DNA from: a virus
Strand: one strand, 5' to 3'
DNA length: 64,000 nucleotides
IMG/VR virus record: IMGVR_UViG_3300029286_000025
Location: 17,159 to 81,158 of that record
Position 1 is the first letter of the stretch; each line of letters starts with the position of its first letter. Positions 1,757 through 52,827 of the stretch are shown piece after piece. The notes under the pieces are model-generated. The model was not told the origin of the DNA, ran no database searches, and saw only the letters and a list, made by a program, of their open reading frames with translations. Made by a program: the position numbers and the translations under genes.

Positions 1757-3310
1757 ATGAATTACATAGAAATAATAAGAAAAGAAAACGGACCATCTGG
1801 TAGAATGTATGTGGAAAAATACATAAAAAGAATTTATCCAGAATTACATTTAGAAATTATTAGTTATTGTAATGAAAAATTAAACGATATTTCATTTAAA
1901 GAAAAAGTTTATCATTATGTACATGATATTAAAGAAAAAATATTATGTTGTAATTCAAATTGTAATAACGAAGTAAAATTTAGAAATTCAACTTTGGGAT
2001 ATTATAATTATTGTTCAAATAAATGTATAAGTAGTGATCAGAAAATAAAAGATATTAAAGAAAAGAAATCTTATGAAAAATTTGGAACTAAAGCACCATC
2101 AATGAATATTGATGTTAAAAGAAAAATGATAAAAACGAATCAAGAAACATATGGTTACAATTCACCTTTACAAAATGAAAATATAAAAAGAAAATCCAAA
2201 AAAACATTATTTGAAAATTATAATGTTGATAATCCAAATCAATCTCGAATATTGGTAGAAAGAAGAATTAAAAGTTATAGTAAAAATATCAAGAAAAAAT
2301 ATTTAAATCTATATAAATCGATAGGTGTATATGATATTGATTATAAAAATAGAAAAATGTTTTTAAAATGTGAAAAGGGTCATTTTTTTGAATTGGAATT
2401 GGATTTGTTTCATAATAGAAGAAGAACAAATACATTATTATGTACTGTATGCAATCCAATAAATAAACATATATCTGGATGTGAATTGCAGTTACAAGAT
2501 TTTATAGATAAAAATTTTAATTTCTTTAAAATTTTAAATGATAGAAAAATTTTAAAGCCATATGAAATTGATATTTATTTACCGGATTTGAAACTAGGGT
2601 TTGAATTTAACGGCCTTTTTTATCACTGTGAAAAACGAATTGAAAATAATTATCATTTAAAAAAAACTGAATTATCCGAAAAATTAGGAATAAAATTAAT
2701 TCAAATTTATGAAGATGAGTGGATATATAAACAGGAAATAGTTAAATCTTATATTTTAAATTTATTGAATAAATCACCAAATAAAATATTTACAAGAAAA
2801 TGCATTGTAAAAGAAATATCAGATAATAAATTAGTTGGTGATTTTCTTGAAAATAATCATTTACAAGGTTTTGTTGGTTCAAGAATTAAACTTGGTTTAT
2901 TTTATAATAATGAATTGGTTTCTTTGATGATTTTTAAAAAATGTAAAAACAATACTTATGAAATGCTAAGATTTTGTAATAAATTAAATACAAATATTAT
3001 TGGGTCTGAAAATAAATTATTTAAATATTTCATTAAAAAATACAATCCGATTGAAGTGATTAGTTATGCTGATCGTTCATTGAGTCGAGGCGAATTATAT
3101 TATAAATTAGGATTTAAATTGATTTATAAAATAAAGCCAAATTATTATTATGTTATAAATAGAACAAGAAAATGTAGATCTCTTTATAAGAAAAATATTT
3201 TGATAAATCAAGGCTTTGATCAAAATAAAACGGAAAAAGAAATCATGTTGGACAGAAAAATATATCGTATTTATGATAGTGGAAGTTTGAAATTTATATG
3301 GAAAAAATAA
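1757..3310 (+). CDS. Homing endonuclease, Vsr-like (EDxHD) type with Zn and YG-repeat N-terminus
   Basis: A 517-residue mobile nuclease. The N-terminus has Cys pairs (CCNSNC, then YCSNKC) that look like a zinc finger. Next come repeats of the form T-x-x-x-YG-x-x-x-P-x-Q-N (about residues 110-170). A Vsr-like nuclease core follows: YEIDIYLPDLKLGFEFNG, FYHC, then IKLIQIYEDEW. The C-terminal 190 residues form a separate domain (KEISDNKLVGDFLENNHLQG, later EVISYADRS) found in many phage homing nucleases. A paralogue with clear residue identity across the whole length lies on the other strand at 51205-52827. It sits alone between the sheath gene and a hypothetical gene, as free-standing homing genes do. 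The nuclease class is clear, the target site is unknown. Confidence 0.8.
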   Translation: MNYIEIIRKENGPSGRMYVEKYIKRIYPELHLEIISYCNEKLNDISFKEKVYHYVHDIKEKILCCNSNCNNEVKFRNSTLGYYNYCSNKCISSDQKIKDIKEKKSYEKFGTKAPSMNIDVKRKMIKTNQETYGYNSPLQNENIKRKSKKTLFENYNVDNPNQSRILVERRIKSYSKNIKKKYLNLYKSIGVYDIDYKNRKMFLKCEKGHFFELELDLFHNRRRTNTLLCTVCNPINKHISGCELQLQDFIDKNFNFFKILNDRKILKPYEIDIYLPDLKLGFEFNGLFYHCEKRIENNYHLKKTELSEKLGIKLIQIYEDEWIYKQEIVKSYILNLLNKSPNKIFTRKCIVKEISDNKLVGDFLENNHLQGFVGSRIKLGLFYNNELVSLMIFKKCKNNTYEMLRFCNKLNTNIIGSENKLFKYFIKKYNPIEVISYADRSLSRGELYYKLGFKLIYKIKPNYYYVINRTRKCRSLYKKNILINQGFDQNKTEKEIMLDRKIYRIYDSGSLKFIWKK

Positions 3311-16567: not shown

Positions 16568-17563
16568 ATGATATTAGATGAATTTGTTTTAATGTATTGG
16601 AATAATTATGATAAAAAATATTATGTTGATAAAGGATATGTTTTCACAAAAAGATTTGATAAATTTGAAGTAAATATTAAAGATTTAATGTTGTGTAGTA
16701 ACTTGAAGATAAATGTTAAATGCGATATTTGTGGTAAAGAAAAACTATTATCATATCGTAAATATTTAAAAAATATGAATAATGGTGATTATTATTCTTG
16801 TTCTCAGAAATGTTCTCATAATAAATCTAAACAAACTAGTTTAAAAAATTATGGAGTGGAACATTATTTACAATCTGATATTGGTATAAAAAGAATACAA
16901 AATACATGTTTGGAAAGATATGGATTTGAAAATGTATCTAAAAACAATGAAATAAAAAAAAGGAAAAAACAAACTTGTTTAAAAAATTATGGAACTGAAT
17001 ATCCAAGTCAATCGAAAGAAATACAAGAAAGATATAAACAAACTTGTTTAAAAAAATATGGTTGCGAATGGCCTTGGTTAAATATAGAAGTGAAAGAAAA
17101 AGTTGAAAATACTATGTTAAAAAAATATGGAACAAAAAACCCAACACAAAACATAAATATAATGAATAGTATAATTCAAACACAAATAGATAAATATGGT
17201 GAAATTTGGAAAAATCATGTTCCTAGATATAATCCAAATTCAATAATGTATTTAGATTTAATATCAAAAAAATTAAATATACCAATTCAGCATGCTTTAA
17301 ATGGTGGTGAAAAGAAATTCATAAAATATTGGATAGATGGATATATTGATAAATATAATATATGTATTGAATGGGATGAAGAATGTCATAATTTAGAAAA
17401 TGATAAAAAAAGAGATGAATATTTAAAAGATAATTTTAATTGTAAAATGATAAGAATTAGACAAAAAACATTTCTTAAAAATATAGATATTGAAATTGAA
17501 AAAATAGTTGATGAAATAAATGATTATATTTTATCATTAAAATCGTATGAAAAGAAAAAATAA
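16568..17563 (+). CDS. Homing endonuclease with Zn motif, YG repeats and PD-(D/E)XK-like domain
   Basis: 331 residues. The N-terminus carries CDICGKEKLLSYRKY with SCSQKC, a likely zinc site. Four repeats of T-C-L-x-x-YG-x-x-x-x-x-Q-N/S (about residues 90-200) follow, as in other nucleases in this window. The C-terminal 100 residues contain QHALNGGEKKFIKYWIDGYI, CIEWDEECH and KMIRIRQKTF, fitting a PD-(D/E)XK or Vsr-like core (D, then E-x-D/E). The gene at 48623 ends with a related domain. It converges with the Ro60 gene, with a shared bidirectional terminator between. Confidence 0.75.
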   Translation: MILDEFVLMYWNNYDKKYYVDKGYVFTKRFDKFEVNIKDLMLCSNLKINVKCDICGKEKLLSYRKYLKNMNNGDYYSCSQKCSHNKSKQTSLKNYGVEHYLQSDIGIKRIQNTCLERYGFENVSKNNEIKKRKKQTCLKNYGTEYPSQSKEIQERYKQTCLKKYGCEWPWLNIEVKEKVENTMLKKYGTKNPTQNINIMNSIIQTQIDKYGEIWKNHVPRYNPNSIMYLDLISKKLNIPIQHALNGGEKKFIKYWIDGYIDKYNICIEWDEECHNLENDKKRDEYLKDNFNCKMIRIRQKTFLKNIDIEIEKIVDEINDYILSLKSYEKKK

Positions 17564-17649: not shown

Positions 17650-19257
17650 TTAGATTTCAACTGCTTCAATCTTGTGAATCAAAGCCTGACGATCTTGTTC
17701 CAACATTTTCATTAAATCGAAAACTTTATCTGAAAATCCAGCCAAAGCGTAAACTTTGTTTTCTGGGAATTGTAAAGTTCCGTAACCTTTAAGGTCAATA
17801 GAATAGATATGAGACTGACATTTATACTTTTTACAGTATTCTTTGAAAGTTGTTGTTGGTGCGTGATATCCAACCCAACCTTGTTCATCAGATAAAATAA
17901 TTATTCTATCGTAAGCTTTATTGGCTTTTTGAAAGATACTATGGAAATTAGTACCAGCACAAGCGAACTTGTAAATGTTTGTAATAGTCATCAAACTATC
18001 AGATGGGTTATAGTTTTTGTATTCTGCATGATCATCAAATCTCATCAAATCACAACCATTACGTTTTGCGATAGCGGCTGCGAATTGTGCACCAGCTTCA
18101 GCACAACTAATTGTACTTTTTGCTACTTTATTTGATGTCATAGAACCAGATGTATCTAAAACAACCAATGTTTCACCATCAAATTTCGGAATATTATTAA
18201 GTGAAATTTCAGTAGCTTCGTTGATGGCAGTTAGAACTTTTCTGTATTTAGAATCCGAAGTACCAAGACTTTGTAATTCTTTGTAAGCTACAAGAAATCT
18301 GAATGGTAAAACCAATGATTTCTTAATTAACTTTTCATCAGTTAAAAGTTCACAAGCGACATCAATCATTTCCGGTGCTTGTTCAACAATGTTTCTTAGG
18401 TTACGAAGTAAAGCGAAGTAACCGATTTTACGTTCACTAAGAAGCTTTGTCCAAGCGTCTTTTTTAAGGTCTTGTTTTTCATCTTCATTGTTAGCTATTT
18501 GACCAGCTTTTGACAATTCAGATTCCCAAGTGTCTTTACTACGAAGTAAATCAATTACAAGTGCTTCAAGAGCGTGAATTTTGATAGTTCCACCTTCTTG
18601 TGATTTAACCCAATTAAGTTTCTTTTCAATTTCTTTCTTATCTTCAGCTTTCTTTTTCAAAGATAATTTCTTGTTAAGTATGTCAATGTATTCTTGACGA
18701 TTAACAGTTACCAAAAATTTATCACCCTGTGTTGGTACTGGGTGTACCAAGTTGGCAATATCAACTAATTTGAAGTCTTTACCTTCACCTCTCCATTTTC
18801 CAAGTTGGTATGCATCGAATCTTGAAATAGCTTCAGCGAAGCCTTTTTTCATCGAATTGGTAATTTTGTTGTCTTTCTTTTTCATGTAGTAAGCCAAGAT
18901 TTCCATCATATCATCCGGTCTACGGACAATTTTGTTATAGAAATTTTTTGCCCAAGGTAAGTTGGACAAATATTTAGCCAATTCAGCAGCTGTAATATGT
19001 GATATGGATCTCATACCAAATTCATTACGGGCATAAAGTGCAGATTTAGCTACAAAATCCGGTTGTGTCTTACCAATAAGATCAATCAATCTGTTATTGG
19101 TTTGTTCTTCAGTTTCGTAAAAAGAATTCTGTACAAAGGATGTTAACAAAATAGAAACTAATTCTAATTTATTTGATTCTTTGTAGGCTTCACCACCTGC
19201 TAAGTTAACAGTTTTTTCTGCTTTGTAAGCAACTTTTTTTTCATTGAATTTTGACAT
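17650..19257 (-). CDS. rsr: Ro60/TROVE-domain RNA-binding protein (Rsr-like)
   Basis: 535 residues, the usual length of Ro60/Rsr. The N-terminal two thirds are TROVE helical repeats (FVAKSALYARNEFGMRSISH, then YYMKKKDNKITNSMKKGFAE, then YQLGKWRGEG). From about residue 360 a von Willebrand A domain starts with VVLDTSGSM, the metal-site DxSxS motif, followed by GTNFHSIF (MIDAS Thr) and IIILSDEQGW. Ro60 proteins form a ring that binds Y RNAs on the outside and the ends of misfolded RNAs in the cavity, and in bacteria they work with nucleases such as PNPase. Immediately upstream lie a structured RNA gene and a Y-RNA-like element. Codon use looks less biased to A/T than in neighbouring hypothetical genes, so it is probably well expressed. 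Confidence 0.92.
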   Translation of the reverse strand: MSKFNEKKVAYKAEKTVNLAGGEAYKESNKLELVSILLTSFVQNSFYETEEQTNNRLIDLIGKTQPDFVAKSALYARNEFGMRSISHITAAELAKYLSNLPWAKNFYNKIVRRPDDMMEILAYYMKKKDNKITNSMKKGFAEAISRFDAYQLGKWRGEGKDFKLVDIANLVHPVPTQGDKFLVTVNRQEYIDILNKKLSLKKKAEDKKEIEKKLNWVKSQEGGTIKIHALEALVIDLLRSKDTWESELSKAGQIANNEDEKQDLKKDAWTKLLSERKIGYFALLRNLRNIVEQAPEMIDVACELLTDEKLIKKSLVLPFRFLVAYKELQSLGTSDSKYRKVLTAINEATEISLNNIPKFDGETLVVLDTSGSMTSNKVAKSTISCAEAGAQFAAAIAKRNGCDLMRFDDHAEYKNYNPSDSLMTITNIYKFACAGTNFHSIFQKANKAYDRIIILSDEQGWVGYHAPTTTFKEYCKKYKCQSHIYSIDLKGYGTLQFPENKVYALAGFSDKVFDLMKMLEQDRQALIHKIEAVEI

Positions 19258-19303
19258 AATAATCCTTTCTTTTTTATTTTTTGTTTGTTTGTAATTTAAA
19301 GTT

Positions 19304-19347
19304 AAAAAAAAAAGGGACTATCGAAATAAATTTCAGTAGCCCCTTTT
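19304..19347 (-). terminator. Intrinsic terminator of the structured RNA
   Basis: On the minus strand AAAAGGGGCTA pairs with TAGTCCCTTTT, with the stem extended through GAAA and TTTC, and ten T residues follow. The other strand has only four T residues, so the direction is leftward. It ends about 50 bases before the Ro60 start. Confidence 0.8.
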
Positions 19348-19720
19348 GGTGACATTCATTTCTGAATGTCTTAATCTATAGATGAAGAAAACGATAAGTG
19401 AGATGTGAAATTTAGGTTTTCACTAAAATGAAAGATTTATCATCTTTCATATTCAACCCCGATTTTGGGTTAATTGGAACCTTGACTTTTTGGATGTCAA
19501 ATCCTCGGTTTTAGGTAGAACCGAACCACCTGTTATCACCTTATTGGTGATAACGTTTCTGATGCCCGAAGGCTTCTTCCATAATTGTCGAAGTAACACT
19601 CAATCTTACTATCATCAGTAAATATTATAAGGAGTAAATCTAAAATAACTTTTTTTCATTTCCTACGAAGTAAGTTATTTTATCACTACCTTTTTTAAAA
19701 ATCATTAAAATTAAGAACGT
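19304..19720 (-). ncRNA. Large structured RNA gene upstream of Ro60 (candidate, new or unrecognised)
   Basis: No credible ORF is present, yet the minus-strand transcript can fold into about ten local hairpins. In plus coordinates the arms include: 19642-19651 with 19672-19681 (10 bp); 19564-19573 (GCC-TTCG-GGC tetraloop); 19532-19540 with 19546-19554 (perfect 9 bp); 19505-19510 with 19519-19524; 19482-19486 with 19496-19500; 19455-19460 with 19467-19471; 19428-19436 with 19442-19450 (perfect 9 bp); 19405-19410 with 19418-19423; 19351-19370 (8 bp, GAAA loop). It is clearly richer in G+C than its surroundings. It ends in an intrinsic terminator, and TATAAATA at 19727-19734 could be its promoter. 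Confidence 0.7.
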
Positions 19721-19726
19721 TTGTTT

Positions 19727-19734
19727 TATTTATA
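19727..19734 (-). promoter_or_regulatory. T4-late-like promoter core TATAAATA
   Basis: On the minus strand the sequence reads GAAATATAAATAAAAC. The octamer TATAAATA is the T4 late core. Its spacing to the first hairpin of the structured RNA (about 45 bases) would suit a transcript start near 19715. Confidence 0.4.
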
Positions 19735-19762
19735 TTTCAAAAAAACATAAAAGTTTAAAAAA

Positions 19763-19869
19763 TTGTAAAGATATTTTTTTAAGAGTTTTGATAAAAAGCG
19801 ACTTTTTGGTGCTTTCTATTGGAGTCGAACCAATTAGAACCGAAGTATCTCTTAAAATTGCTATTACAA
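19763..19869 (-). ncRNA. Y-RNA (YrlA)-like candidate with tRNA-like module
   Basis: On the minus strand the ends pair: TTGTAA (19869-19864) with TTACAA (19768-19763), and after an internal loop TTTTAAGAG (19857-19849) with CTCTTAAAA (19785-19777). Inside are a small UUCG hairpin, a tRNA-like T arm (ATTGG-TTCGACT-CCAAT, 19834-19818), and a 7-bp acceptor-like stem AGAAAGC (19817-19811) with GCTTTTT (19799-19793), one wobble pair, whose 3' arm is followed by ACCA. A tRNA fold with closed acceptor joined to a long end-stem is how I understand bacterial YrlA RNAs, which bind Ro60. No clear D arm is visible, which weakens the call. Confidence 0.5.
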
Positions 19870-19960: not shown

Positions 19961-22387
19961 TTAAATATTATATTTTTTTGGCCAAAATTGTTTTTTTTGT
20001 GAATTTGGCCAAAATAATGGATTTTTATTTTCATCATCATTTTTTCTAAATGGGTCAGGTTCTCTCCAAGGATTTCGTTTAAATATTTCGTTTGAATCAT
20101 CTTCTCTCCAAGGATTATTTGGTTTAATAGAATTTATTTGTGACATCACATCAACTTTATTTATGAATTGTTTTCTAGCTAATCTGAATGATTTGTAGTT
20201 TATTGTATTTTCAAGTGGTGCAGTTTCTAAGAAATTTTTAACAATTTCTTTTTCTATATCTGTTGCATTAAAGTCAATATAAGTGTCAATTATATTTTTC
20301 CAATCAATATGACTATAAATAGTTGCCAAGTTTATAATTGACATCACACAGTCATCAGTACCACTTTGAGATTTATATGTCACTTCACCATTTGCCAATT
20401 CTTTTTTGGAGAATGAACTTAATTCTATTATGGTTCCACTGTGATGTAATACCATCGCGTCTTTTTTGATACAATCTTGAAAATCTTTTATCATTAGTTT
20501 CTTGCCTTTTTCTCCACTTTTCACAAGGAAACCAACAGTTAGGTAAGTATCAGTTTCATTTTGTTTGTAACGAACAAATACCGAATCACCATAATTGTTG
20601 ATATCATTAAATACATGTTTCATATTATCTAGAAGTCTATCACCCAGATTTTTATTTTTTTCAAGAACTATTTTTACTTTTTCAGAATCGAATAATTCAA
20701 ATCCTATTAAATATAATATATGTGATATTTCATTTGCGTTATAAATATTATTTTGAAAAACACCAATTTGTTCCAATTTAAATAAATCATATTTGCTTTC
20801 ATACATTAGTCTTTTTCTATTTATAATATCTTTATCTTTCATCATTAATCTAAAAATATTTATCACAGTGTAATTTTGTGCAAGTCCTTCACCCATGTCA
20901 ATTCCTATAAATATATTATAATTTTTTACTTGTCTAATATCAAATAGATCCGGTCTATTTTTTATCCATTTTAAATCTGTATAAGGAAATTTTAATTTAT
21001 TTTCAAATTGTGGTATTTCTTTATATTCAAATGGTGTTTCATTATTAGTTAAACTTTCAAATATAATACTATCAAATAATAAATTTTGATCTGTTATAAA
21101 TTGAAGTCCGTATTCTTGTTTGAATTTATCTTCACCACCTATAAGATTTGTTTCTTCTTCTTCCCAATTAGAAATATATGCAATTTCAGTAAAAGGAATT
21201 TCACTTTCAAATTCCATATTGTCATCTCTTGTTTCTAAATTTGTTGCAATTCTTAATGAACGGATACTGGAAATATCAGATTGAAGTGATGGGGTTATTT
21301 CATCATCTTCGTAAAATTTAATATGATGTATAGCTATACCATCAAGTACCTTATCATAAAGTTTATAACCCAATTCATTTCTCAAATAATTCAAAACATA
21401 ACCTTCAGTTAATCCGTGTTTTTTGAGTTTGTCGTCAATGAATTTTATTTTAGTATCCCTCCTACCTTTTATTTGATACCAATAAACTTTAAGTGCTTTA
21501 TATGGGTTTTTATGTGGATCACCTTCTGGTAATTCGGCATCTCTTAATAATTCAAAGAATAAATTTCTACCGTCCGGGGTTGATGTAATAATAATTTTTG
21601 AATTTGTAATTGATGATACAGTTGGTACAACGGATGAATAATAAGCTCTAATTATATTATCTGGAATTTTAGCAAACTCATCGAGATATAGTAAATCTAT
21701 TGTAAAACCAATGGCCGGTTCTTTGGATCTATTTTGTGTTTGTATTCTACTACCATTTTCAAAAGATAGTGATCTTTCGTTCCAGTTGTTTATACCGGCC
21801 TTTAAGTAGAATGGTAATAATTTATATATGTCTTTTATTTTTCTTATAATTTCTTTAACAGTATTAGATACGTTAGCAACAACCATAACCCCTTTATCTT
21901 TATTAAATAAAACAGTCCACAACATTACAATTGCAGCACTAACTGTATTTAAACTTAAAATATCATTTGTATAATAACTATGTTCATTGGATTGAATTGA
22001 TAAATCGAACATAGAAACTTTATAGTTTTGTTTAATAATAGATTTTATTTTTGATGGACCCCTTTTGGTTAAAACTATATCATCGTGTGTTAAATCTTTA
22101 ACAAATTTAATTATATGATTTTCACAAAAAACACCATGAACATCCGCACAATTTAATTTAATACCATTTTCCAATTTTAGTGTATAAAATGTATATGGTT
22201 GTGTTAAATTAATTTCTTCAATTGGAACAAAACCATAATCTGTTTCGACTAATAAATTTTCTAATGGTAAAAAATTTAATATTTTTTTTGTTTCATCATT
22301 TTCATCTAAATCTATGTTTCTATATTCATAATTTTCTAATTTTTCAATTAAAAAATATATAATATTTCTTAATATTTTCTTAAACAT
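19961..22387 (-). CDS. terL: Terminase large subunit, C-terminal part, preceded by split-intein C-half
   Basis: Residues 1-147 are the C-terminal part of an intein (VETDYGFVPIEEINL, CADVHGVF, ending YTNDILSLN). Residue 148 (Thr) starts the C-extein TVSAAIVMLW, which joins exactly to the Walker A motif SRQSGK of 24561-25094. The rest is a T4 gp17-type motor: LLYLDEFAK is Walker B, ITSTPDG is the coupling motif, and FIGIDMGEG starts the RNase H-like nuclease. The last 60 residues are an odd Trp/Asn/Pro-rich tail. After protein splicing in trans the full motor would be about 780 residues. The start codon overlaps the end of the upstream endonuclease gene (ATGTTTAA). The penultimate intein residue is Leu, not the usual His. 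Confidence 0.85.
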   Translation of the reverse strand: MFKKILRNIIYFLIEKLENYEYRNIDLDENDETKKILNFLPLENLLVETDYGFVPIEEINLTQPYTFYTLKLENGIKLNCADVHGVFCENHIIKFVKDLTHDDIVLTKRGPSKIKSIIKQNYKVSMFDLSIQSNEHSYYTNDILSLNTVSAAIVMLWTVLFNKDKGVMVVANVSNTVKEIIRKIKDIYKLLPFYLKAGINNWNERSLSFENGSRIQTQNRSKEPAIGFTIDLLYLDEFAKIPDNIIRAYYSSVVPTVSSITNSKIIITSTPDGRNLFFELLRDAELPEGDPHKNPYKALKVYWYQIKGRRDTKIKFIDDKLKKHGLTEGYVLNYLRNELGYKLYDKVLDGIAIHHIKFYEDDEITPSLQSDISSIRSLRIATNLETRDDNMEFESEIPFTEIAYISNWEEEETNLIGGEDKFKQEYGLQFITDQNLLFDSIIFESLTNNETPFEYKEIPQFENKLKFPYTDLKWIKNRPDLFDIRQVKNYNIFIGIDMGEGLAQNYTVINIFRLMMKDKDIINRKRLMYESKYDLFKLEQIGVFQNNIYNANEISHILYLIGFELFDSEKVKIVLEKNKNLGDRLLDNMKHVFNDINNYGDSVFVRYKQNETDTYLTVGFLVKSGEKGKKLMIKDFQDCIKKDAMVLHHSGTIIELSSFSKKELANGEVTYKSQSGTDDCVMSIINLATIYSHIDWKNIIDTYIDFNATDIEKEIVKNFLETAPLENTINYKSFRLARKQFINKVDVMSQINSIKPNNPWREDDSNEIFKRNPWREPDPFRKNDDENKNPLFWPNSQKKQFWPKKYNI
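21947..22387 (-). other. TerL split intein, C-half (147 aa)
   Basis: The fragment holds the intein folding motifs after the first 50 residues, including the terminal Asn followed by Thr +1. With only 54 residues in the N-half, the split lies near the N-terminus, as in the atypical phage split inteins such as AceL-TerL. Confidence 0.75.
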
Positions 22388-23525
22388 TTTTATTTTTTAT
22401 TAATTTTAAAATAATAGATTTTATATATTTATTATTATTTTTCCATTCTTTTTCCCATACATGTATTAAATTGATATTTTTATTTTTACAATTATTTGTT
22501 TTATCATTATGATAATTTTCATTTTTATAGATATTACTATGCCAATAATCACCGTTATATTCAAATGCTAAATTTAAATCTGGTAAATAAATGTCTAATT
22601 CTTTACCATTTAATATTTTTCTATCATTTTTAATTATTACCCCTTTATAATTTTCTTTTATGAATTTAAATAATTTTCTTTCACCGTCTGATGTTAAAGA
22701 ATGTTCTGGATAACATATTGTACATGTTGTTATGTTATGTGACAACCTATTATGAAATAAATTAATATTTATTTCATAATTATGTCCTTCTTCACAACAA
22801 CAGAAATATTTTTTATTTTCGTAATCTATTTTTTTAATAAATAAATATTTAGATAACATTTTTTTATTATAATATTTTTGTGTTTTTTCTTTATGTTCTG
22901 GTAATTGTGATACATTTTCAATATTATATTTTGTTTTACATGTTTTTTTAATTTTTATAATGTTATTGTAATTTTCATTATCATATTTTTTGTTTTTTGT
23001 ATTTTTCGCTTTTTCAACAAAAAATGAATTTTGTGCTGGTCTATCACAATTGTATTTTTCATTATTTGTTTTTATAGATTTTTGTAAAATTTCTTTATTT
23101 TGTTGTGGATAGTCACAATCATATTTTTCATTATTTGTTAATTTAATTTTATTTTTAATTTCTTCATTTTGAAAAACATTTTCAAATCCATAAATTTCCA
23201 AATTTGTTTTTTTACATTTATTTCTATTATTATAAGTTTTATTATTATATTTTTTTTGACATGTTAATTTGTTTTTAATGGATGAACATTTGTGACAAGT
23301 ATATAAATTATATTTATTAAAATTATTATTATAACTTTGATAAGATATAATTTTTTCACATCCACAAATATCACAAATTCCTGTTATTTTAACATGTGAT
23401 TTTAATGAGACGTGTTCTATTTTTATTAAAATTTCATCATTTAAATTACAAACATAACCAAAATTTCTAAATTTTTTAATTGTTTTGTCTGCAATTTTGA
23501 TGTTTACTTCTTTTTCTTTTATCAT
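22380..23525 (-). CDS. Vsr-like homing endonuclease inside the fractured terminase locus
   Basis: 381 residues. The N-terminus has CDICGCEKIISYQSY and a later CHKC zinc pair. Six repeats of N-x-x-KYDCDxPQQN or IYGFENVFQN type follow (about residues 110-220). The nuclease core is LNGKELDIYLPDLNLAFEYN, GDYWHS and INLIHVWEKEW, with the D, E and H positions of Vsr-like (EDxHD) enzymes. It lacks the extra C-terminal domain of the 1757 and 51205 proteins. It lies between the two intein halves of terminase, overlapping the start of the C-half. By analogy with fractured genes, it should cut intein-less terminase alleles. Confidence 0.8.
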   Translation of the reverse strand: MIKEKEVNIKIADKTIKKFRNFGYVCNLNDEILIKIEHVSLKSHVKITGICDICGCEKIISYQSYNNNFNKYNLYTCHKCSSIKNKLTCQKKYNNKTYNNRNKCKKTNLEIYGFENVFQNEEIKNKIKLTNNEKYDCDYPQQNKEILQKSIKTNNEKYNCDRPAQNSFFVEKAKNTKNKKYDNENYNNIIKIKKTCKTKYNIENVSQLPEHKEKTQKYYNKKMLSKYLFIKKIDYENKKYFCCCEEGHNYEININLFHNRLSHNITTCTICYPEHSLTSDGERKLFKFIKENYKGVIIKNDRKILNGKELDIYLPDLNLAFEYNGDYWHSNIYKNENYHNDKTNNCKNKNINLIHVWEKEWKNNNKYIKSIILKLIKNKNV

Positions 23526-35461: not shown

Positions 35462-36535
35462 ATGAATAAAACAGAAAATTTTATTAAAAAATCTATTGAT
35501 ATTCATGGTAATTTATATGATTATTCATTGGTTGAATATATTAATAATAATACCAAAGTAAAAATTTTATGTAATGAACATGGTGAATTTAAACAAAAAC
35601 CAGTAAATCATATATATTTTAAATGTGGTTGTCCTAAATGTGCAGGAAAAAATATAACTACACAAGAATTTATAGAAAAATGTAATAAAATTCATGGTAA
35701 TTTATATGATTATTCATTGGTTGATTATAAAACAATGCACATTAAAATAAAGATAATATGTCCAGAACACGGTATTTTTGAACAAACACCATCTAATCAT
35801 ATTCATCATGGATGTAAAAAATGTTTTTTTGATAAAAAGAGAAATAATGAAAAAATAATAATTGAAAAATTCAAAAAATTACATAATAATTTATATGATT
35901 ATTCATTGATTGATTATAAAACTATGAATACCAAAATAAAAATAGTTTGTTTAAAACACGGTATTTTTGAACAAACACCAGTGAATCATTTACAAGGTAA
36001 AGGATGTTATAAATGTTCACCAAATAGTAAAAAAGATATTTTTTTAATTTTAGAAAAATTAAATGAATTACATAATAATAAATATAATTATGATATGAAT
36101 TTTAATAAAACTTCAAATAAAATTGAAATTTTATGTGACAAACACGGTATTTTTTACCAAACACTAAATAATCATTTGGATGGTCATGGGTGTCCTTTTT
36201 GTAATGAAAGTAGTGGTGAAAAGAAAATTAATCAATATTTAAGTGAAAAAAATATAAAATTTGAAAGACAAAAAACATTTTCATCTTGTAAAGATAAAAG
36301 AAAATTACCATTTGATTTTTATTTATGTGATTATAATTTATGTATTGAATATGATGGTGAACAGCATTTTATGATTGTGGAAGAATGGGGTGGTGAAGAA
36401 AAATTTTTAATTATTAAAAAACATGATGAAATAAAAAATGAATTCTGTTGGAAAAATTCAATAAAATTATTGAGAATTAATTATGAAGAAAAAATAGAAG
36501 AAAAAATATCTAATTTTTTTTTAGACATTCTTTAA
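35462..36535 (+). CDS. Homing endonuclease with four DUF723-like Zn repeats and PD-(D/E)XK-like end
   Basis: 357 residues. Four repeats of about 65 residues, each containing H-G-N-L-Y-D-Y-S-L-V then K-I-x-x-x-C-x-x-H-G-x-F-x-Q-x-P-x-x-H and a CxxC, for example IICPEHGIFEQTPSNHI. The C-terminal 110 residues contain LPFDFYLCDYNLCIEYDGEQ then HF and KNEFCWKNSIKLLRINYEE, fitting a nuclease with D-x-x, E-x-D-G-x-x-H. Such repeats are DNA-binding modules in phage homing nucleases. The gene begins right after the previous stop and ends 34 bases before the first ribonucleotide reductase gene, a likely target. Confidence 0.75.
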   Translation: MNKTENFIKKSIDIHGNLYDYSLVEYINNNTKVKILCNEHGEFKQKPVNHIYFKCGCPKCAGKNITTQEFIEKCNKIHGNLYDYSLVDYKTMHIKIKIICPEHGIFEQTPSNHIHHGCKKCFFDKKRNNEKIIIEKFKKLHNNLYDYSLIDYKTMNTKIKIVCLKHGIFEQTPVNHLQGKGCYKCSPNSKKDIFLILEKLNELHNNKYNYDMNFNKTSNKIEILCDKHGIFYQTLNNHLDGHGCPFCNESSGEKKINQYLSEKNIKFERQKTFSSCKDKRKLPFDFYLCDYNLCIEYDGEQHFMIVEEWGGEEKFLIIKKHDEIKNEFCWKNSIKLLRINYEEKIEEKISNFFLDIL

Positions 36536-36569: not shown

Positions 36570-37751
36570 ATGGATAGAAAAAACGTATTCGACTCAACTT
36601 TGAAATATTTTAATGGAGATACTTTAGCAGCTGATGTTTGGGTGAATAAATATTGTTTAAAAAATGTTGAAAATGGTGAAATAGTATATTATGAAAATAC
36701 ACCCGATGATATGCATCGAAGAATATCAGATGAATTATATAGAATTGAAAACAAATATAAAAATCCTCTTGAAAAAGAAAAAATATTTGATTTACTTAAA
36801 AATTTTAAATATATTATACCACAGGGATCTCCAATGTCTGGTATAGGTAATAATTTTCAAATAGTGAGTTTAAGTAATTGTTTTGTCATTGGACATGAAT
36901 ATGATTCATATGGTTCCATTATCATGTGTGATGAAGAACAGATTCAATTGATGAAAAGAAGGGGTGGTGTAGGACACGATTTATCACATATCAGACCAAC
37001 AGGAACCGTAGTTCAAAATTCCGCGTTGACATCAACTGGTATTGTTCCGTTTATGGAAAGATATTCAAATTCAACAAAAGAAGTGGCACAGGATGGTAGA
37101 AGAGGAGCTTTAATGCTTACAATTTCAGTCAAACATCCGGACGCTGAAAATTTTATTGATGCAAAACTAGAGCAAGGAAAAGTGACAGGTTCAAATATTT
37201 CAATAAAAATTGATGATGAATTTATGAATTGTGTTTTAAATGATACACCATATATTCAAAAATTTCCAATAAATTCAGACAATCCAAAGGTTACTAAAAG
37301 TATCGATGCTAAAAAATTATGGAAAAAAATAATTTACAATGCATGGAAATCAGCAGAACCGGGGGTTTTATTTTGGGATACTGTTATTAGAGAATCTGTT
37401 CCAGATTGTTATAAAGAAGATGGTTTCACTACAATCAGTACTAATCCTTGTTTATCTGGTGATTCTCTTATTACAACAACAAAGGGTGAAATATCAATTA
37501 AAGAAATTTTTAATAATTTCAAAAATGAAAAATATCAAGTTTTAACATATAATGAAAAAAATAAAAATTTAGAATATAATAATGTATCTGATGCTATTTT
37601 AACAAAAAGAAATGCCAATATAATAGAAATTGAATTAGTTGATGGAACTACATTAAGATTAACACCAGATCATAAAGTTTATACGAAAAATAGAAAATGG
37701 ATAGAAGCATCAAAATTAACAAATGATGATATATTAATAAAAATAGATTAA
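36570..37751 (+). CDS. nrdJ: Class II ribonucleotide reductase, N-part, plus split-intein N-half
   Basis: Residues 1-293 are the first part of an adenosylcobalamin-dependent (class II) reductase: SLSNCFVIG has the first redox Cys, MKRRGGVGHDLSHIRP and DGRRGALM are typical strand-helix blocks, and the extein ends TTISTNP. Residue 294 (Cys) opens an intein N-half of 100 residues: CLSGDSLITTTKGEISIKEI (block A) and LRLTPDHKVYTKNRKWIEAS (block B). Insertion lies directly before the active-site C-G-E of the partner gene (38575), so the catalytic cysteine is the +1 residue of the C-extein. This site and the intein resemble the reported NrdJ-1 split intein. Confidence 0.9.
   Translation: MDRKNVFDSTLKYFNGDTLAADVWVNKYCLKNVENGEIVYYENTPDDMHRRISDELYRIENKYKNPLEKEKIFDLLKNFKYIIPQGSPMSGIGNNFQIVSLSNCFVIGHEYDSYGSIIMCDEEQIQLMKRRGGVGHDLSHIRPTGTVVQNSALTSTGIVPFMERYSNSTKEVAQDGRRGALMLTISVKHPDAENFIDAKLEQGKVTGSNISIKIDDEFMNCVLNDTPYIQKFPINSDNPKVTKSIDAKKLWKKIIYNAWKSAEPGVLFWDTVIRESVPDCYKEDGFTTISTNPCLSGDSLITTTKGEISIKEIFNNFKNEKYQVLTYNEKNKNLEYNNVSDAILTKRNANIIEIELVDGTTLRLTPDHKVYTKNRKWIEASKLTNDDILIKID
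37449..37748 (+). other. NrdJ split intein, N-half (100 aa)
   Basis: Contains blocks A and B, with block B His in TPDHKVY. This is the common split position, between block B and the place where an endonuclease domain normally sits. Confidence 0.85.
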
Positions 37752-37753
37752 TA

Positions 37754-37801
37754 AATCCATGTGATTATTTTATATATAGGTATAAAATAATCACATGGAT
37801 T
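37754..37801 (+). repeat. Perfect 21-bp inverted repeat just before the endonuclease start codon
   Basis: Left arm 37754-37774, loop 37775-37780, right arm 37781-37801, with no mismatch. The ATG of the next gene begins at 37803. In mRNA the hairpin would hide the ribosome-binding region. No T run follows, so it is not a normal terminator. Confidence 0.9.
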
Positions 37802-37802
37802 G

Positions 37803-38567
37803 ATGGAAAAAATATTATCCTTTTTTAATGATGTAAAATTAAAAAAATTTAAAACAAGAAATGGTGGTTCAATTTATCATGATAAAGACAAAATAAAATC
37901 AGATATTAGATATGATTTGGTTAAAGAATTTATAGAAAAAAATTATTATACTAATGGTATGGGAATAAAATCAATTATTAAAAAATATAATTTACCAATT
38001 ACATATTCTATTTTAAGATTTTATTTTATAAATTTTTTTAAAATTAAAATTAGAGATAATAAAGAAATAACAGATTTTATAAGAAAATCAAGAAGAGAAA
38101 AGGCAACATATGAACGAGATAATAAAATTGGGTTTTTTAATCAAAATTTACAAGATAACCTTAAAATTAGAAATAGTACAATAAGAGGGATACAAGGTTA
38201 TTATTTTAATATTTCATTAAATAAATATGTATGGTTGAGAAGTTCTTGGGAATATATTTTTGCGAAATGGTTAGATAAAAATAATTATAAATGGGATGTC
38301 GAAATTAAAACTTTTGAAATTTCGAATAATAAAAAATATAGACCCGATTTTTTTATATTTGATAATAATGATAATATTATTAAAATAATAGAAGTTAAAG
38401 GTTATTGGAAAGATAAACTTTATAAATTTGTAGAACTAAAAAATATGTTAAATAAATCTAATATTGAATTTATTTTGGTTGATAAAATAAAAACATATTC
38501 ATATAATGGATTTAAACAAGATTTGAATAATTGGAAAAGAGAAAGAATTTTGGATTTAAAAAAATAA
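37803..38567 (+). CDS. PD-(D/E)XK homing endonuclease inside the fractured nrdJ locus
   Basis: 254 residues. The N-terminal half is basic and helical, with a helix-turn-helix-like stretch (GIKSIIKKYNLPITYSILRF). The nuclease core is VWLRSSWEYIFAKWLDKNNY, then KKYRPDFFIF and IIKIIEVKGYWKDK, giving P-D...E-V-K typical of PD-(D/E)XK nucleases such as those of phage homing genes. I start at the ATG 37803 rather than the TTG three bases earlier. A perfect hairpin ends one base before the ATG, so translation may be restrained. It sits between the two intein halves and would mobilise the split locus. Confidence 0.8.
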   Translation: MEKILSFFNDVKLKKFKTRNGGSIYHDKDKIKSDIRYDLVKEFIEKNYYTNGMGIKSIIKKYNLPITYSILRFYFINFFKIKIRDNKEITDFIRKSRREKATYERDNKIGFFNQNLQDNLKIRNSTIRGIQGYYFNISLNKYVWLRSSWEYIFAKWLDKNNYKWDVEIKTFEISNNKKYRPDFFIFDNNDNIIKIIEVKGYWKDKLYKFVELKNMLNKSNIEFILVDKIKTYSYNGFKQDLNNWKRERILDLKK

Positions 38568-38574
38568 TTTTAAT

Positions 38575-38685
38575 ATGAAAGAGATAAAAATTAAAAAAAT
38601 AAACATTAAACAAAATGATGATGTATATGATTTAAAAATAGAAAATAATCATAACTTTTTTGCAAATAAAATATTAGTTCACAAC
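38575..38685 (+). other. NrdJ split intein, C-half (37 aa)
   Basis: Short C-half with blocks F and G. The ending I-L-V-H-N followed by Cys is the standard splice junction. Confidence 0.85.
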
Positions 38686-40338
38686 TGTGGTGAGATTCCA
38701 TTATGTCCAAATGATTCTTGCCGCTTATTGGCAATAAATTTATATAATTTTGTAAAAAATCCATTTACTAAAGATCCAATTTTTGATTGGGAATGGTTTA
38801 AAAAATGTGTTTTGTATGCAGAAAGATTCATGGATGATATTATAGATTTGGAAATTGAAAAAATTGAAAAAATTATTGAAAAAATAAAATTAGATCCAGA
38901 ACCAGAATATATGAAAAAAGTGGAAATGGAAGTTTGGAATAAAATTATGAATATGACTAAAAAAGGTCGTAGAACTGGATTGGGTGTTACAGCAGAGGGA
39001 GATATGTTAGCTGGTATGGGTTTAATTTATGGAACCCCGGAAGCAACTGAATTTTCAACTAAAATTCATAAAACACTCGCAATCGAAGCTTATCGTTCAT
39101 CCTGTATTTTAGCTAAAGAAAGAGGTACATTTCCTATATATGATTACAATAAAGAAATAAATAATCCATTTATTAGCAGATTAAAAAATGATGATCCAGA
39201 ATTGGATGAAATGTTAAAAAAATATGGAAGAAGAAATATATCATTACTTACAATTGCACCAACCGGCAGTGTGAGTATTTTAACACAAACGACATCAGGT
39301 GTCGAACCTGTTTTTCTTGTGTCTTATAAAAGAAGAAGAAAAATAAATCCATCAGATAAAGATATGATGGTGAATTTTGTTGACGATGAGGGAATTAAAT
39401 GGCAAGAATATAATGTATTTCATCATAAATTTGAAGTTTGGTTGAAAAACAATGGATATAATATCGATGAAGTGAAACTTATGAAGGAAGAAGATTTGAA
39501 AGAAATAATCAAATTATCACCTTACTATAAAGCAACATCAAATGATGTTGATTGGGTTGAAAAAATTAAAATGCAAGGTAGTATTCAAAAATATGTCGAT
39601 CATTCTATTTCAGTAACAGTAAATTTACCGAAAACTGCAACAGAAGAAATGGTTTCCCAAGTGTATGAAACCGGATGGAGTAGTGGGTGTAAAGGCGTTA
39701 CTGTATATAGAGATGGTTCAAGACAGGGTGTTATTATTTCTAATGAAAGTAAAGATAAAAAAACATCAACAAATAATATTCCAAAAAGGCCAGTAAAATT
39801 ACAATGTGATGTACTTAGATTTGTAAGTAGAGGTAATAAATGGGTTGGTTTTGTTGGTTTAATGGAAGATACTGATGAAACCTATCCATATGAAATGTTT
39901 ACTGGATTGGCTGATGATTTTGTTATTCCTAATTATGTCGAAAAGGGTTTTATTAGAAAGGAAAAAATAAAAGATAGTGAAAACAATTTAATTTCCAGAT
40001 ACGATTTTATTTACCATGATAAAGATGGATTTGAAGTGACAATGCAGGGTCTTAATCGTGCATTTGATAGAGAATATTGGAATATTGGTAAATTATTAAG
40101 TGGTTTACTTCGTCATAGAATGCATTTTCCATCAATTATAAAAATCATAGAATCTTTAAAATTAGACGGTGATACTTTGGGTACTTGGAAAAAAGGTGTT
40201 ATCAGAATTTTAAAAAGATATATCAAAGAAGGTGAGATGGAAACTGATGAAGAATGTCCAATTTGTAAATCTAAAAATTTGGTTCATAAAGAAGGTTGTG
40301 TTTCATGTTTGGACTGTCAATGGTCGAGATGTTCTTGA
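38575..40338 (+). CDS. nrdJ: Class II ribonucleotide reductase, C-part, preceded by split-intein C-half
   Basis: Residues 1-37 are an intein C-half (DDVYDLKIENNHNFFANKIL then VHN), with canonical His-Asn ending and Cys +1. The extein CGEIPLCPNDSCRLLAINLY carries the thiyl-radical cysteine. Downstream SLLTIAPTGSVSIL and GCKGVTVYRDGSRQG are class II reductase blocks. The last 25 residues have a zinc-ribbon-like set of cysteines (CPICKSKN, CVSCLDCQWSRCS) including the C-terminal redox pair. Spliced to the N-part it makes a reductase of about 840 residues. It needs a B12 cofactor, presumably taken from the host. A transposon remnant begins about 25 bases after the stop. Confidence 0.9.
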   Translation: MKEIKIKKINIKQNDDVYDLKIENNHNFFANKILVHNCGEIPLCPNDSCRLLAINLYNFVKNPFTKDPIFDWEWFKKCVLYAERFMDDIIDLEIEKIEKIIEKIKLDPEPEYMKKVEMEVWNKIMNMTKKGRRTGLGVTAEGDMLAGMGLIYGTPEATEFSTKIHKTLAIEAYRSSCILAKERGTFPIYDYNKEINNPFISRLKNDDPELDEMLKKYGRRNISLLTIAPTGSVSILTQTTSGVEPVFLVSYKRRRKINPSDKDMMVNFVDDEGIKWQEYNVFHHKFEVWLKNNGYNIDEVKLMKEEDLKEIIKLSPYYKATSNDVDWVEKIKMQGSIQKYVDHSISVTVNLPKTATEEMVSQVYETGWSSGCKGVTVYRDGSRQGVIISNESKDKKTSTNNIPKRPVKLQCDVLRFVSRGNKWVGFVGLMEDTDETYPYEMFTGLADDFVIPNYVEKGFIRKEKIKDSENNLISRYDFIYHDKDGFEVTMQGLNRAFDREYWNIGKLLSGLLRHRMHFPSIIKIIESLKLDGDTLGTWKKGVIRILKRYIKEGEMETDEECPICKSKNLVHKEGCVSCLDCQWSRCS

Positions 40339-51204: not shown

Positions 51205-52827
51205 TTAATTTTTCCAGATAAATTTCAAACTACCACTATCATAAATTCGATAAATCTTTCTTTCTAACATGATTTCATGTTCTGTTTTGTTCGGATCAAA
51301 ACCTTCACTAACTAATTTATCTTTTCTAAAATTAAATCTATGATAACGTTTTTTATCTATAATATAGTAATAATTTGGTTGAGTTTTGTGAATTAATTTA
51401 AATCCAAGTTGTTTATACAATTCCCCTTGACTCCATGATCTATCAGCGTAACTAATCACTTCCTTATGTTTGTAATTTTCGATAAAATATTTGAATACTT
51501 TTTCAGAGCCACCAATTACTGATGTGTTTAATTTACTACAAAATCTCAACATTTCATAAACACCATCAGAATTACTTTGTTTCATAAATTTACGTTTCGA
51601 TCCAAAAGTCATCAAGGAAACCAATACATCATTATAAAACAAACCAAGTTTAATCTGTGATCCGACAAATCCTTGTAAATGACTTTTTTCTAAAAAATCA
51701 CGAATTAATTTATTATCTGTAATTTCTTTAATGATACATTTACGGGCGTAAATTTTATTTGGTGTTTTACCTATTAAATTTAGGATTCTGGATTTAATTA
51801 TTTCTTGTTTATAAATCCAATCATCTTCATAAATATGTATTAATTTTATATCTTGTTGTTCACATTTTTCTGTTTTATCTAAATGATAATTATTATCGAC
51901 ACCAAATTCATTGTGCCAAAATAATCCATTAAATTCAAATGCCAATTTTAAATCTGGTAAATAAATGTCTAGTTCATATGGTGAAATAATATTTCTTTTA
52001 TTTAATTGAATTTCTTTATTGTAATTTTCTTTAATGAAATTTTGAAGTTGTATTTCATAACCACTATTTGAAAAAGAATTTATCGGATTACAAAATGGAC
52101 ATAAAATAGTTTTATATGATATTCTATTTTTTATTGAAGAATTCATTTTAAATATATGTCCTTTTTCACACACATATTCATTATTATTGTTTACTAACAT
52201 AATACCATATTTAGATAAAATATTTAATCTTTTTATCATACGAGTATGTGATGATTTTTTACGAAAATCAGAATTTTTATTTAAATTATCAACTCCATAT
52301 TTTTCTAAACATGTTTTTTTATATTGTTCTAAATTATTATAGTTTTCATCACCATATTTTTCAAGTTTAGTTTGCTTTGATTTGTTTTTGAATTCATCCA
52401 ATTGTAAAGCGTGTTCTATCCCATAATTTTTAAATATTGTTTTTTTATTTTTTTCTATGTTATTATAGTTTTCATCATTATATCTTTCAATTTTAGTTTG
52501 TTTGGATTTATCTTTAAAAATATTAGTAGTAAAAAAATATTCATTACCATATTTATTTTTATTTGTAAGTTTATTTTTTACTATACTACATTTTTTACAA
52601 GTTATAAAATTATATTTTGATAACCTCAAAACGTAAGTTTGATATGACATTTTTAATATTTTTTCACACAAATCACATTTAACTTCAATTATTTGATGAG
52701 ATCCATTTGATAAATGTTCAACAGGAATTTTTAAGATATCTTTTAATTTAATATCATATTTAAGATTTTTATAAAAATTAATATTCTTTTTATTTATTTT
52801 TATTTCAACTTCTTTTGTTATTAACAT
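51205..52827 (-). CDS. Vsr-like homing endonuclease, paralogue of 1757-3310
   Basis: 540 residues. Zinc motif CDLCEKILKMSYQTY with CKKC, repeats of N-K-x-K-x-T-x-x-x-N/KYG (about residues 110-190), nuclease core YELDIYLPDLKLAFEFNGLF, WHNEFG and IKLIHIYEDDW, and the same C-terminal domain (KEITDNKLIRDFLEKSHLQG, EVISYADRSWSQGELYKQLG, ending IYRIYDSGSLKFIW). Identity with the copy beside the sheath gene runs over the whole length, though the N-terminal thirds differ most. It is intact, located directly upstream of uvsX. Confidence 0.82.
   Translation of the reverse strand: MLITKEVEIKINKKNINFYKNLKYDIKLKDILKIPVEHLSNGSHQIIEVKCDLCEKILKMSYQTYVLRLSKYNFITCKKCSIVKNKLTNKNKYGNEYFFTTNIFKDKSKQTKIERYNDENYNNIEKNKKTIFKNYGIEHALQLDEFKNKSKQTKLEKYGDENYNNLEQYKKTCLEKYGVDNLNKNSDFRKKSSHTRMIKRLNILSKYGIMLVNNNNEYVCEKGHIFKMNSSIKNRISYKTILCPFCNPINSFSNSGYEIQLQNFIKENYNKEIQLNKRNIISPYELDIYLPDLKLAFEFNGLFWHNEFGVDNNYHLDKTEKCEQQDIKLIHIYEDDWIYKQEIIKSRILNLIGKTPNKIYARKCIIKEITDNKLIRDFLEKSHLQGFVGSQIKLGLFYNDVLVSLMTFGSKRKFMKQSNSDGVYEMLRFCSKLNTSVIGGSEKVFKYFIENYKHKEVISYADRSWSQGELYKQLGFKLIHKTQPNYYYIIDKKRYHRFNFRKDKLVSEGFDPNKTEHEIMLERKIYRIYDSGSLKFIWKN

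What the first reader, a model, noticed from the sequence alone, without database searches (positions are those of the whole stretch)
17650..19869. Phage Ro60 with two adjacent candidate RNA partners
A complete TROVE/Ro60 protein is encoded beside about 700 bases with no protein gene. That stretch holds a 400-base RNA candidate with about ten hairpins, its own terminator and a late-like promoter, and a second 107-base element whose folded form (paired ends, internal loop, T arm, capped acceptor stem with ACCA) fits a YrlA-type Y RNA. Bacterial Ro60 is known to bind Y RNAs that tether it to nucleases. A phage carrying both protein and RNAs would have a portable RNA surveillance or RNA-capturing machine. 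The larger RNA does not look like any RNA I know.
Basis: partly seen in the sequence, partly recalled or inferred. Interest (0 to 1): 0.92.

Follow-up and report, generated by a model that had tools for sequence, protein, structure and literature searches.

The report
Phage Ro60 with three Y RNAs
A very large bacterial virus carries the RNA-binding ring protein Ro60 next to three RNAs that look built to plug into it, one of them unusually large and probably carrying a string of RNA knots; the protein and the small RNAs are a known kind of partnership, while the large RNA is a new variation.

Summary
Ro60 (17650-19257, minus) is a full TROVE + vWA protein. The ~700 bases before it hold three, not two, candidate Y RNAs on the minus strand: Y-a (19763-19869; T arm and capped acceptor-like stem, no D arm), Y-b (19629-19692; minimal hairpin) and Y-c (19381-19616; giant, ~190-nt insert). 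The '400-base RNA' is Y-b plus Y-c, between a TATAAATA and a terminator. All three share a bipartite stem: outer stem, UAGURA-like loop, inner stem, UACUUC ... inner stem, U-rich loop, outer stem. A strict search found this stem 59 times before 60 virus ro60 genes (34 of 60 loci; shuffles 1, 0, 0). Rfam's YrlA model hits such elements in 6 of 6 relatives tested, always below its cut-off, but not in the window. Phages with Ro60 and YrlA-type RNAs are already in print. What is unusual is Y-c: five phages keep its Ro60-type ends while the inside varies, with hairpins and probably 2-4 tandem pseudoknots (strong in three of the five). Likeliest role: interchangeable adaptors that gate Ro60 and tether it to RNA-processing partners. 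Binding and function are inferred. The terminase is 57.6% identical to that of a 735-kb phage.

The parts
17650..19257 (-). ro60 gene, 535 aa: TROVE ring plus vWA domain with D-x-S-x-S (D368, S370, S372)
19304..19345 (-). intrinsic terminator (hairpin with one mismatch, then T run) between the RNA array and ro60
   Evidence: not listed by the stricter scan
19351..19370 (-). extra hairpin between Y-c and terminator; not seen in L002, L011 or L027
   Evidence: sequence
19381..19616 (-). Y-c, giant Y-type RNA, 236 nt; outer stem GAUGA/UCAUC, loop UAGUAA, bulged inner stem, UACUUC at 19590-19595, then about 190 nt of insert
   Evidence: homologs L002, L011, L027, L091
19405..19423 (-). 3' hairpin of Y-c, GUGAAA-ACCUAAA-UUUCAC; loop kept and stem changed on both sides in L091
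19505..19531 (-). pseudoknot unit 1 of Y-c
19482..19504 (-). pseudoknot unit 2 of Y-c
19459..19481 (-). pseudoknot unit 3 of Y-c, weak in the window (3 bp in the second helix), complete in L002 and L027
   Evidence: not found by the automated chain in the window
19629..19692 (-). Y-b, minimal Y-type RNA, 64 nt
   Evidence: (z -3.88, 0 of 200 shuffles)
19727..19734 (-). TATAAATA, T4-type late promoter-like box, 35 nt upstream of Y-b
   Evidence: 46 in window, 28.0 expected, 0 of 100 shuffles reach 46
19763..19869 (-). Y-a, YrlA-like Y RNA, 107 nt; outer stem UUGUA/UACAA, inner stem UUUUAAGAG/CUCUUAAAA
19818..19834 (-). T arm of Y-a, AUUGG-UUCGACU-CCAAU; outermost pair changed on both sides in L011
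19793..19817 (-). capped acceptor-like stem of Y-a, AGAAAGC ... GCUUUUU
   Evidence: not recovered by the consensus fold

Best explanation
The locus encodes a phage Ro60 ribonucleoprotein: the Ro60 ring and a set of three Y RNAs with one common Ro60-docking stem and three different heads. Y-a ends in a tRNA-like head, Y-b in a bare loop, Y-c in a ~190-nt head of hairpins and probably tandem pseudoknots. Y-b and Y-c are probably made as one ~410-nt late transcript that stops before ro60; ro60 is reached by read-through or a promoter of its own. By analogy with the D. radiodurans Rsr-Y RNA-PNPase machine (PMC7790460 and PMC12282133, passages), each docking stem binds the outside of the Ro60 ring; the heads decide what the ring is coupled to: the bare Y-b gates the ring, tRNA-like Y-a addresses tRNA-handling enzymes, and giant Y-c scaffolds a larger host or phage RNA-processing partner, so that structured or damaged RNA is fed to it during late infection. 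Shown: protein family and fold; the common stem and its covariation across relatives; the T arm; the giant's conserved ends and variable inside. Inferred: binding, transcription units, partners, purpose.
For: Ro60 identity and fold; residues aligned to Xenopus K170 and H187 are K154 (30 of 30) and H172 (at least 90% of 30) (that these contact Y RNA is recalled). Docking stem: 59 hits in 34 of 60 ro60 loci, against 1, 0 and 0 in three sets of shuffles, 0 on the reverse strand, 0 in the first 1200 nt of ro60. The outer stem, not used by that search, pairs with its own partner at -5.73 kcal/mol on average against -2.50 for permuted partners (0 of 5000 reach it; 69 modules, 38 of 61 loci). YrlA model hits such elements in 6 of 6 relatives tested (28.5-44.8 bits, best E 7.6e-7). 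Y-a: 5 of 21 predicted pairs compensated among 6 phages. Y-c: a bulge-tolerant scan finds it as the only hit on both strands of the 64-kb window, against 2 hits in 20 shuffled strands; ends conserved in 5 of 5 homologs with a GAU/AUC to GAG/CUC change in 2 of 5.
Against: No RNA or binding data. Rfam recognises none of the three RNAs. The strict finder missed Y-c, paired Y-a with a wrong 3' partner and found nothing in 26 of 60 loci, L002 included. The relaxed scan was written after Y-c had been seen. Consensus folding of the Y-b alignment did not recover the stem (alignment out of register). No partner nuclease was identified; I did not search the window for PNPase-like genes beyond the proteins. 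Terminators before ro60 were found in only 14 of 38 loci.
Confidence: 0.72

Rival explanations
1. The stretch is a cis-acting leader: Ro60 binds the stems in its own mRNA and controls read-through of the terminator at 19304-19345, so the RNAs are regulators of ro60 and not Y RNAs.
For: Same strand and directly upstream of ro60, with a terminator between (14 of 38 loci have one within 220 nt).
Against: Loci with up to four modules (8 loci with three, 3 with four), 30 of 69 modules with a T arm, TATAAATA upstream of Y-b, and 24 of 38 loci without a detected terminator fit stable RNAs better. Both roles could coexist.
Confidence: 0.12
2. The RNAs are decoys against host defence: Y-a mimics tRNA to absorb tRNA-cutting toxins, and the pseudoknots of Y-c mimic the pseudoknot RNA antitoxins of type III toxin-antitoxin systems.
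For: tRNA-like head; tandem pseudoknots; fast change of the inside of Y-c while the ends stay. PMC7790460 (passages) suggests that YrlA could act as a competitive inhibitor of a tRNA nuclease.
Against: No Rfam match; that ToxI-type RNAs are modelled in Rfam is recalled. Units in Y-c differ in sequence and are about 23 nt, shorter than the ToxI repeats I recall. Does not explain the shared Ro60-type ends.
Confidence: 0.15
3. Y-c is an unrelated large structured RNA of GOLLD, ROOL or tmRNA type that happens to lie near ro60.
For: Size, hairpin density (z -5.20) and pseudoknots; phages carry such RNAs (recalled).
Against: No Rfam match at E<=10. Its best conserved parts are the Ro60-type ends, it was the only hit of the docking-stem scan in the window, and it lies in an array with Y-a and Y-b in 5 of the 6 relatives examined.
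Confidence: 0.07

Closest known systems
YrlA, Y RNA-like (Rfam RF02553)
   Same: 5' and 3' ends form a Ro60-type stem; T arm; capped acceptor-like stem; gene next to ro60. Rfam's model hits elements of the same kind in L003, L012, L014, L015, L022 and L064.
   Different: Y-a is not recognised by the model, has no D arm, and its cap is degenerate. Y-b and Y-c have no tRNA-like head at all.
Bacterial Rsr-Y RNA-PNPase machine (RYPER) of Deinococcus radiodurans
   Same: Ro60 orthologue and adjacent Y RNAs; PDB 2nvo matched by sequence and fold.
   Different: Three RNAs instead of the single Y RNA that I recall as the tether; a giant head; phage-borne; no nuclease partner known. Known from passages in PMC7790460, PMC12282133 and PMC8058203.
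Phage Ro60 and putative phage Y RNAs: Listeria phage CKA15, Vibrio phage pv03-type jumbo phage vB_VhaM_pir03, Thermus phage phiLo Ro60 (PDB 9l5y)
   Same: Ro60 in a phage; in CKA15 abundant RNAs near it are proposed to be Y RNAs (passages); phiLo Ro60 is the top fold match.
   Different: The passages seen describe neither a giant Y RNA nor pseudoknots; the CKA15 proposal is stated there as unverified.
tmRNA pseudoknot string; ToxI-type pseudoknot RNAs
   Same: Several H-type pseudoknots in a row (recalled).
   Different: No Rfam match, no tag reading frame or toxin gene looked for or found; Y-c is closed by a Ro60-type stem.

Membership tests
Ro60 / TROVE | TROVE domain followed by vWA domain | tested here: met
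   Pfam TROVE 2.8e-20 over 42-337, vWA_Ro60 8.7e-11 over 364-516
Ro60 / TROVE | Ro60 ring fold | tested here: met
   AlphaFold2 model pLDDT 88.3, pTM 0.83; 9l5y E 8.8e-17, 1yvp E 4.8e-15, 2nvo E 8.2e-13, TM about 0.5-0.7
Ro60 / TROVE | Y RNA contact residues (Xenopus K170, R174, H187; recalled) | tested here: inconclusive
   K170 and H187 align with K154 and H172, which are conserved; R174 aligns with a variable position
Y RNA (Ro60 partner) | 5' and 3' ends pair into a bulged stem shared with Y RNAs of other Ro60 loci | tested here: met
Y RNA (Ro60 partner) | gene close to ro60 | tested here: met
   window, and the relatives L002, L009, L011, L027, L091
Y RNA (Ro60 partner) | binds Ro60 | not testable with these tools
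   needs pull-down or binding assay
YrlA (RF02553), for Y-a | covariance model score at or above 69 bits | tested here: not met
   no match, even at E<=10 on 126 bases
YrlA (RF02553), for Y-a | T arm | tested here: met
   invariant UUC-A loop and 5-bp stem in 6 of 6, one compensated pair
YrlA (RF02553), for Y-a | acceptor-like stem closed by a cap | tested here: inconclusive
   single-sequence folds show it and the caps in L002, L009, L011, L091 can each form a hairpin by eye, but the consensus fold paired AGAA elsewhere
YrlA (RF02553), for Y-a | D arm | tested here: not met
   only AUCAAAA between the acceptor-like stem and the inner stem
tmRNA / GOLLD / ROOL | match to the Rfam model | tested here: not met
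   ARAGORN finds no tmRNA in the window

The most novel reading that the evidence does not exclude
Y-c is the first of a class of giant Y RNAs of very large phages: a Ro60-docked scaffold whose head is a run of hairpins and 2-4 tandem pseudoknots, gained and lost as units, that turns the Ro60 ring into a larger phage-controlled RNA machine. A second, sequence-unrelated giant of about 225-280 nt before ro60 in L057, L020/L021/L023 and the 634-kb phage LR745206 (L062) would be another member.
Probability: 0.45. Interest if true: 0.78.

Novelty: new variant of a known kind. Interest (0 to 1): 0.6.

Why it matters
Bacterial Y RNAs are described as small adaptors with one head. Here one locus offers three heads on one docking stem, from nothing to a giant. 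That is a natural head-swap experiment: it makes it testable whether Ro60's partners are chosen by the Y RNA head, and gives a phage system in which a large Y RNA may scaffold RNA surveillance or RNA capture. If the tandem pseudoknots hold, they are a new module for Y RNAs and a handle for structure work on a 236-nt RNA-protein complex.

Tried and rejected
Rejected: (1) one 400-base RNA of an unknown class, because both halves carry the docking stem. (2) ACCA as a CCA tail: 2 of 6 homologs only. (3) Family membership by Rfam: none for the window RNAs; YrlA reached gathering score in 0 of 16 phage loci and 0 of 15 bacterial loci. (4) Pseudoknot counts sequence by sequence: not significant for the window (21 of 100 shuffles reach it), L011 (21), L057 (65), L062 (25), L020 (33); L002 5 of 100, L027 0 of 100. 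The case rests on the unit test (hand-parsed) and the chain test. In one search the first window unit, the last two L002 units and the last two L027 units overlap plain hairpins that fold well, and are better read as hairpins; L091 was not significant (40 of 100), L011 marginal (3 of 100). (5) The second giant group: folding z -1.19, 0.25, -1.09 and chain test 65, 20 and 1 of 100 for L057, L062, L020, so it is a lead only. (6) Same locus in the 735-kb phage: no such module seen near its terminase (10 kb of 735 kb read). (7) The 5' half-motif alone is not specific: of 80 listed of 94 stretches, 79 new ones were examined and 14 had Ro60 in the held stretch (the window's own contig L092 counts as a miss there).

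Rows left out: one search used 60 loci (the notebook says 61, a slip; near-duplicates such as L020/L021/L023 were kept there; L058 and duplicate contigs L001, L007, L008, L010, L024, L036, L037, L045 were not used). One search left out L021, L023, L042, L052, L053 and L105 as duplicates. One search used 75 of 80 bacterial loci (without L170, L187, L224, L225, L243) and had no shuffle control.

Papers: core papers on bacterial Y RNAs (PMC4201824, PMC6047535, PMC10870794, and a Structure 2018 DOI) are not held; what I say of them is recalled. Seen as passages only: PMC12282133, PMC7765460, PMC7790460, PMC7824862, PMC8058203, PMC11208441. The ten searches were made; none of their listings showed a giant or pseudoknotted bacterial Y RNA, which is no proof that none is in print.
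Full report
What is there. The window is part of an 81,158-base virus record; the same stretch is in a 132-kb IMG/VR contig (L001). Its terminase is 57.6% identical over 92% to that of the 735-kb phage LR756501 and 39.2% to that of LR745206 (634 kb), so this is probably a fragment of a very large phage (that these belong to the huge-phage clades is recalled). Ro60 is complete, with a confident model (pLDDT 88.3) whose best solved relatives are phage phiLo Ro60 (9l5y), vertebrate Ro60 and Deinococcus Rsr.

The common stem. Reading the sequence upstream of ro60 in relatives shows repeated elements: outer stem, a loop like (U/C)AGURA, inner stem, UACUUC, a head, the other side of the inner stem, a U-rich loop, the other side of the outer stem. 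A strict finder (inner stem of 7 or more pairs, both loop motifs, UACUUC) gave 59 hits in 1.2 kb upstream of 60 virus ro60 genes, in 34 of the 60 loci; three shuffled sets gave 1, 0 and 0; the reverse strand 0; the first 1200 nt of ro60 0. The outer stem was not part of that search; in 69 non-redundant modules from 38 of 61 loci its own partner pairs at -5.73 kcal/mol on average, permuted partners at -2.50, best of 5000 permutations -3.22. The inner stem shows several standard pair types at every position 1-8, though there pairing was a search criterion. Rfam's YrlA model, run at E<=1 on six of these loci, hits all six: eight matches of 28.5-44.8 bits, best E 7.6e-7; six of the eight start on modules of the finder, the other two (L012 2607, L022 2839) on UACUUC elements seen by eye. 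All are below the 69-bit cut-off. The same stem was found before 34 of 75 bacterial ro60 genes, mainly Verrucomicrobia and Bacteroidota (62 hits; no shuffle control). So the element is the shared Ro60-type end of a known RNA kind, and arrays of several are common: 21 loci with one, 6 with two, 8 with three, 3 with four; 30 of 69 modules carry a T arm and 30 have heads under 45 nt.

Y-a. In six related phages (window, L002, L009, L011, L027, L091) the consensus fold recovers the outer stem, the inner stem and the T stem, and 5 of its 21 pairs have compensated changes: two outer, two inner, one T stem. The T loop UUC-A is invariant. The acceptor-like stem AGAAAGC/GCUUUUU appears in single folds; its cap differs (GGU-GAAA-ACC, GC-GAAA-GC, CGC-GAAA-GCG by eye; degenerate in the window). 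The consensus fold put AGAA elsewhere, so this stem is less certain. There is no D arm. It works like a YrlA but is not a member by Rfam's test.

Y-b. 64 nt, z -3.88, found by the strict finder. In relatives the inner stem changes on both sides (UAACU/AGUUA, AGAGU/ACUCU, AAGGU/ACCUU, read), but automatic alignment was out of register and its consensus fold did not show this.

Y-c. 236 nt, z -5.20. The strict finder missed it because the inner stem is bulged. A bulge-tolerant scan that also asks for the outer stem found it as the only hit on both strands of the 64 kb; 20 shuffled strands gave 2 hits. That scan was written after Y-c had been seen. Homologs in L002, L011, L027 and L091 (229-264 nt) keep the ends; the third pair of the inner stem is U-A in three and G-C in two; the 3' hairpin keeps its ACCU-AA loop, and L091 has the stem changed on both sides. 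The inside differs in sequence and length, but each folds better than shuffles: z -4.67, -3.02, -4.10, -3.68, -2.16. L009 has Y-a and Y-b but no Y-c.

Pseudoknots. Between the hairpins, units of about 23 nt follow one another: short stem, loop, short stem, A-rich linker, strand complementary to the loop. I parsed 12 units by hand in four phages (window 3, L002 3, L027 4, L011 2). Loops pair with their own tails for 57 bp in sum against 42.6 on average and 55 at most in 20,000 permutations, and 42 at most with shuffled tails. An automated chain search found the same core units: window, L002 and L027 beyond 100 of 100 shuffles, L011 reached by 3 of 100, L091 not significant (40 of 100). Some chain units are better read as hairpins, and simple counting was not significant for the window. 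I hold tandem pseudoknots likely for the window, L002 and L027, open for L011 and L091.

A second giant. L057, L020/L021/L023 and LR745206 (L062) have another large element with the same ends. Its ends covary by eye (CAAACA/UGUUUG to CAGACA/UGUCUG), but its folding is not better than shuffles. A lead only.

Expression. TATAAATA is enriched in the window (46 against 28.0), which fits T4-type late promoters (recalled consensus); one lies 35 nt upstream of Y-b. The sigma-70 scan found no excess (3 against 4.4). A terminator separates Y-c from ro60, also in L009, L011 and L027; the script did not find one in L091, and L002 was not in that run although a similar hairpin can be read.

Known or new. 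Passages in PMC12282133 state that Y RNAs were found in diverse bacteria and mycobacteriophages, and propose Y RNAs for Listeria phage CKA15 beside an Rsr-like gene. PMC7765460 states that several phages have YrlA. I recall Chen et al. 2014 reporting Y RNAs near Ro60 in over 250 bacterial and phage species; that paper is not held. So protein plus YrlA-type RNAs in a phage is known. I found no description of a giant or pseudoknotted bacterial Y RNA in the searches, which cover only openly licensed papers.

Verdict. New variant of a known kind. The common stem and three-RNA array are well supported; Ro60 binding, head function and the late-infection role are inferred.

Noticed in passing
window 19961-22387 and 36570-40338: Probable inteins: an intein-like N-terminal region in the terminase (Pfam Intein_splicing 5.2e-4, below cut-off) and a ribonucleotide reductase large subunit split over two ORFs, the first ending in an intein domain (2.1e-10).
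   Followed up: no
window 1757-3310, 35462-36535, 51205-52827; also 16568-17563 and 22380-23525: Many homing/HNH-endonuclease-like genes (PHROGs) and two DUF7487 proteins flanking ro60 and terminase.
   Followed up: no
L194, L197, L202, L205, L209, L226 and others: Bacterial ro60 genes of Verrucomicrobia and Saprospiraceae lie just downstream of long runs of tRNA genes: all 95 Rfam matches in 15 loci are tRNA.
   Followed up: no
L012, L014, L015, L107: Arrays of three to five or more Y-type elements before one ro60, several with full tRNA-like heads (T arm, capped acceptor, D arm) by eye.
   Followed up: partly
L062 2628-2907, L057 2658-2911, L020 2673-2898: Second giant Y-type element with a conserved 3' loop near UUUCGGGAGAAUU, not significant by folding.
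   Followed up: partly
window, ro60 residues about 182-241: An insertion predicted as helices and short strands, present in the window and L002 and absent in L003-L006.
   Followed up: no
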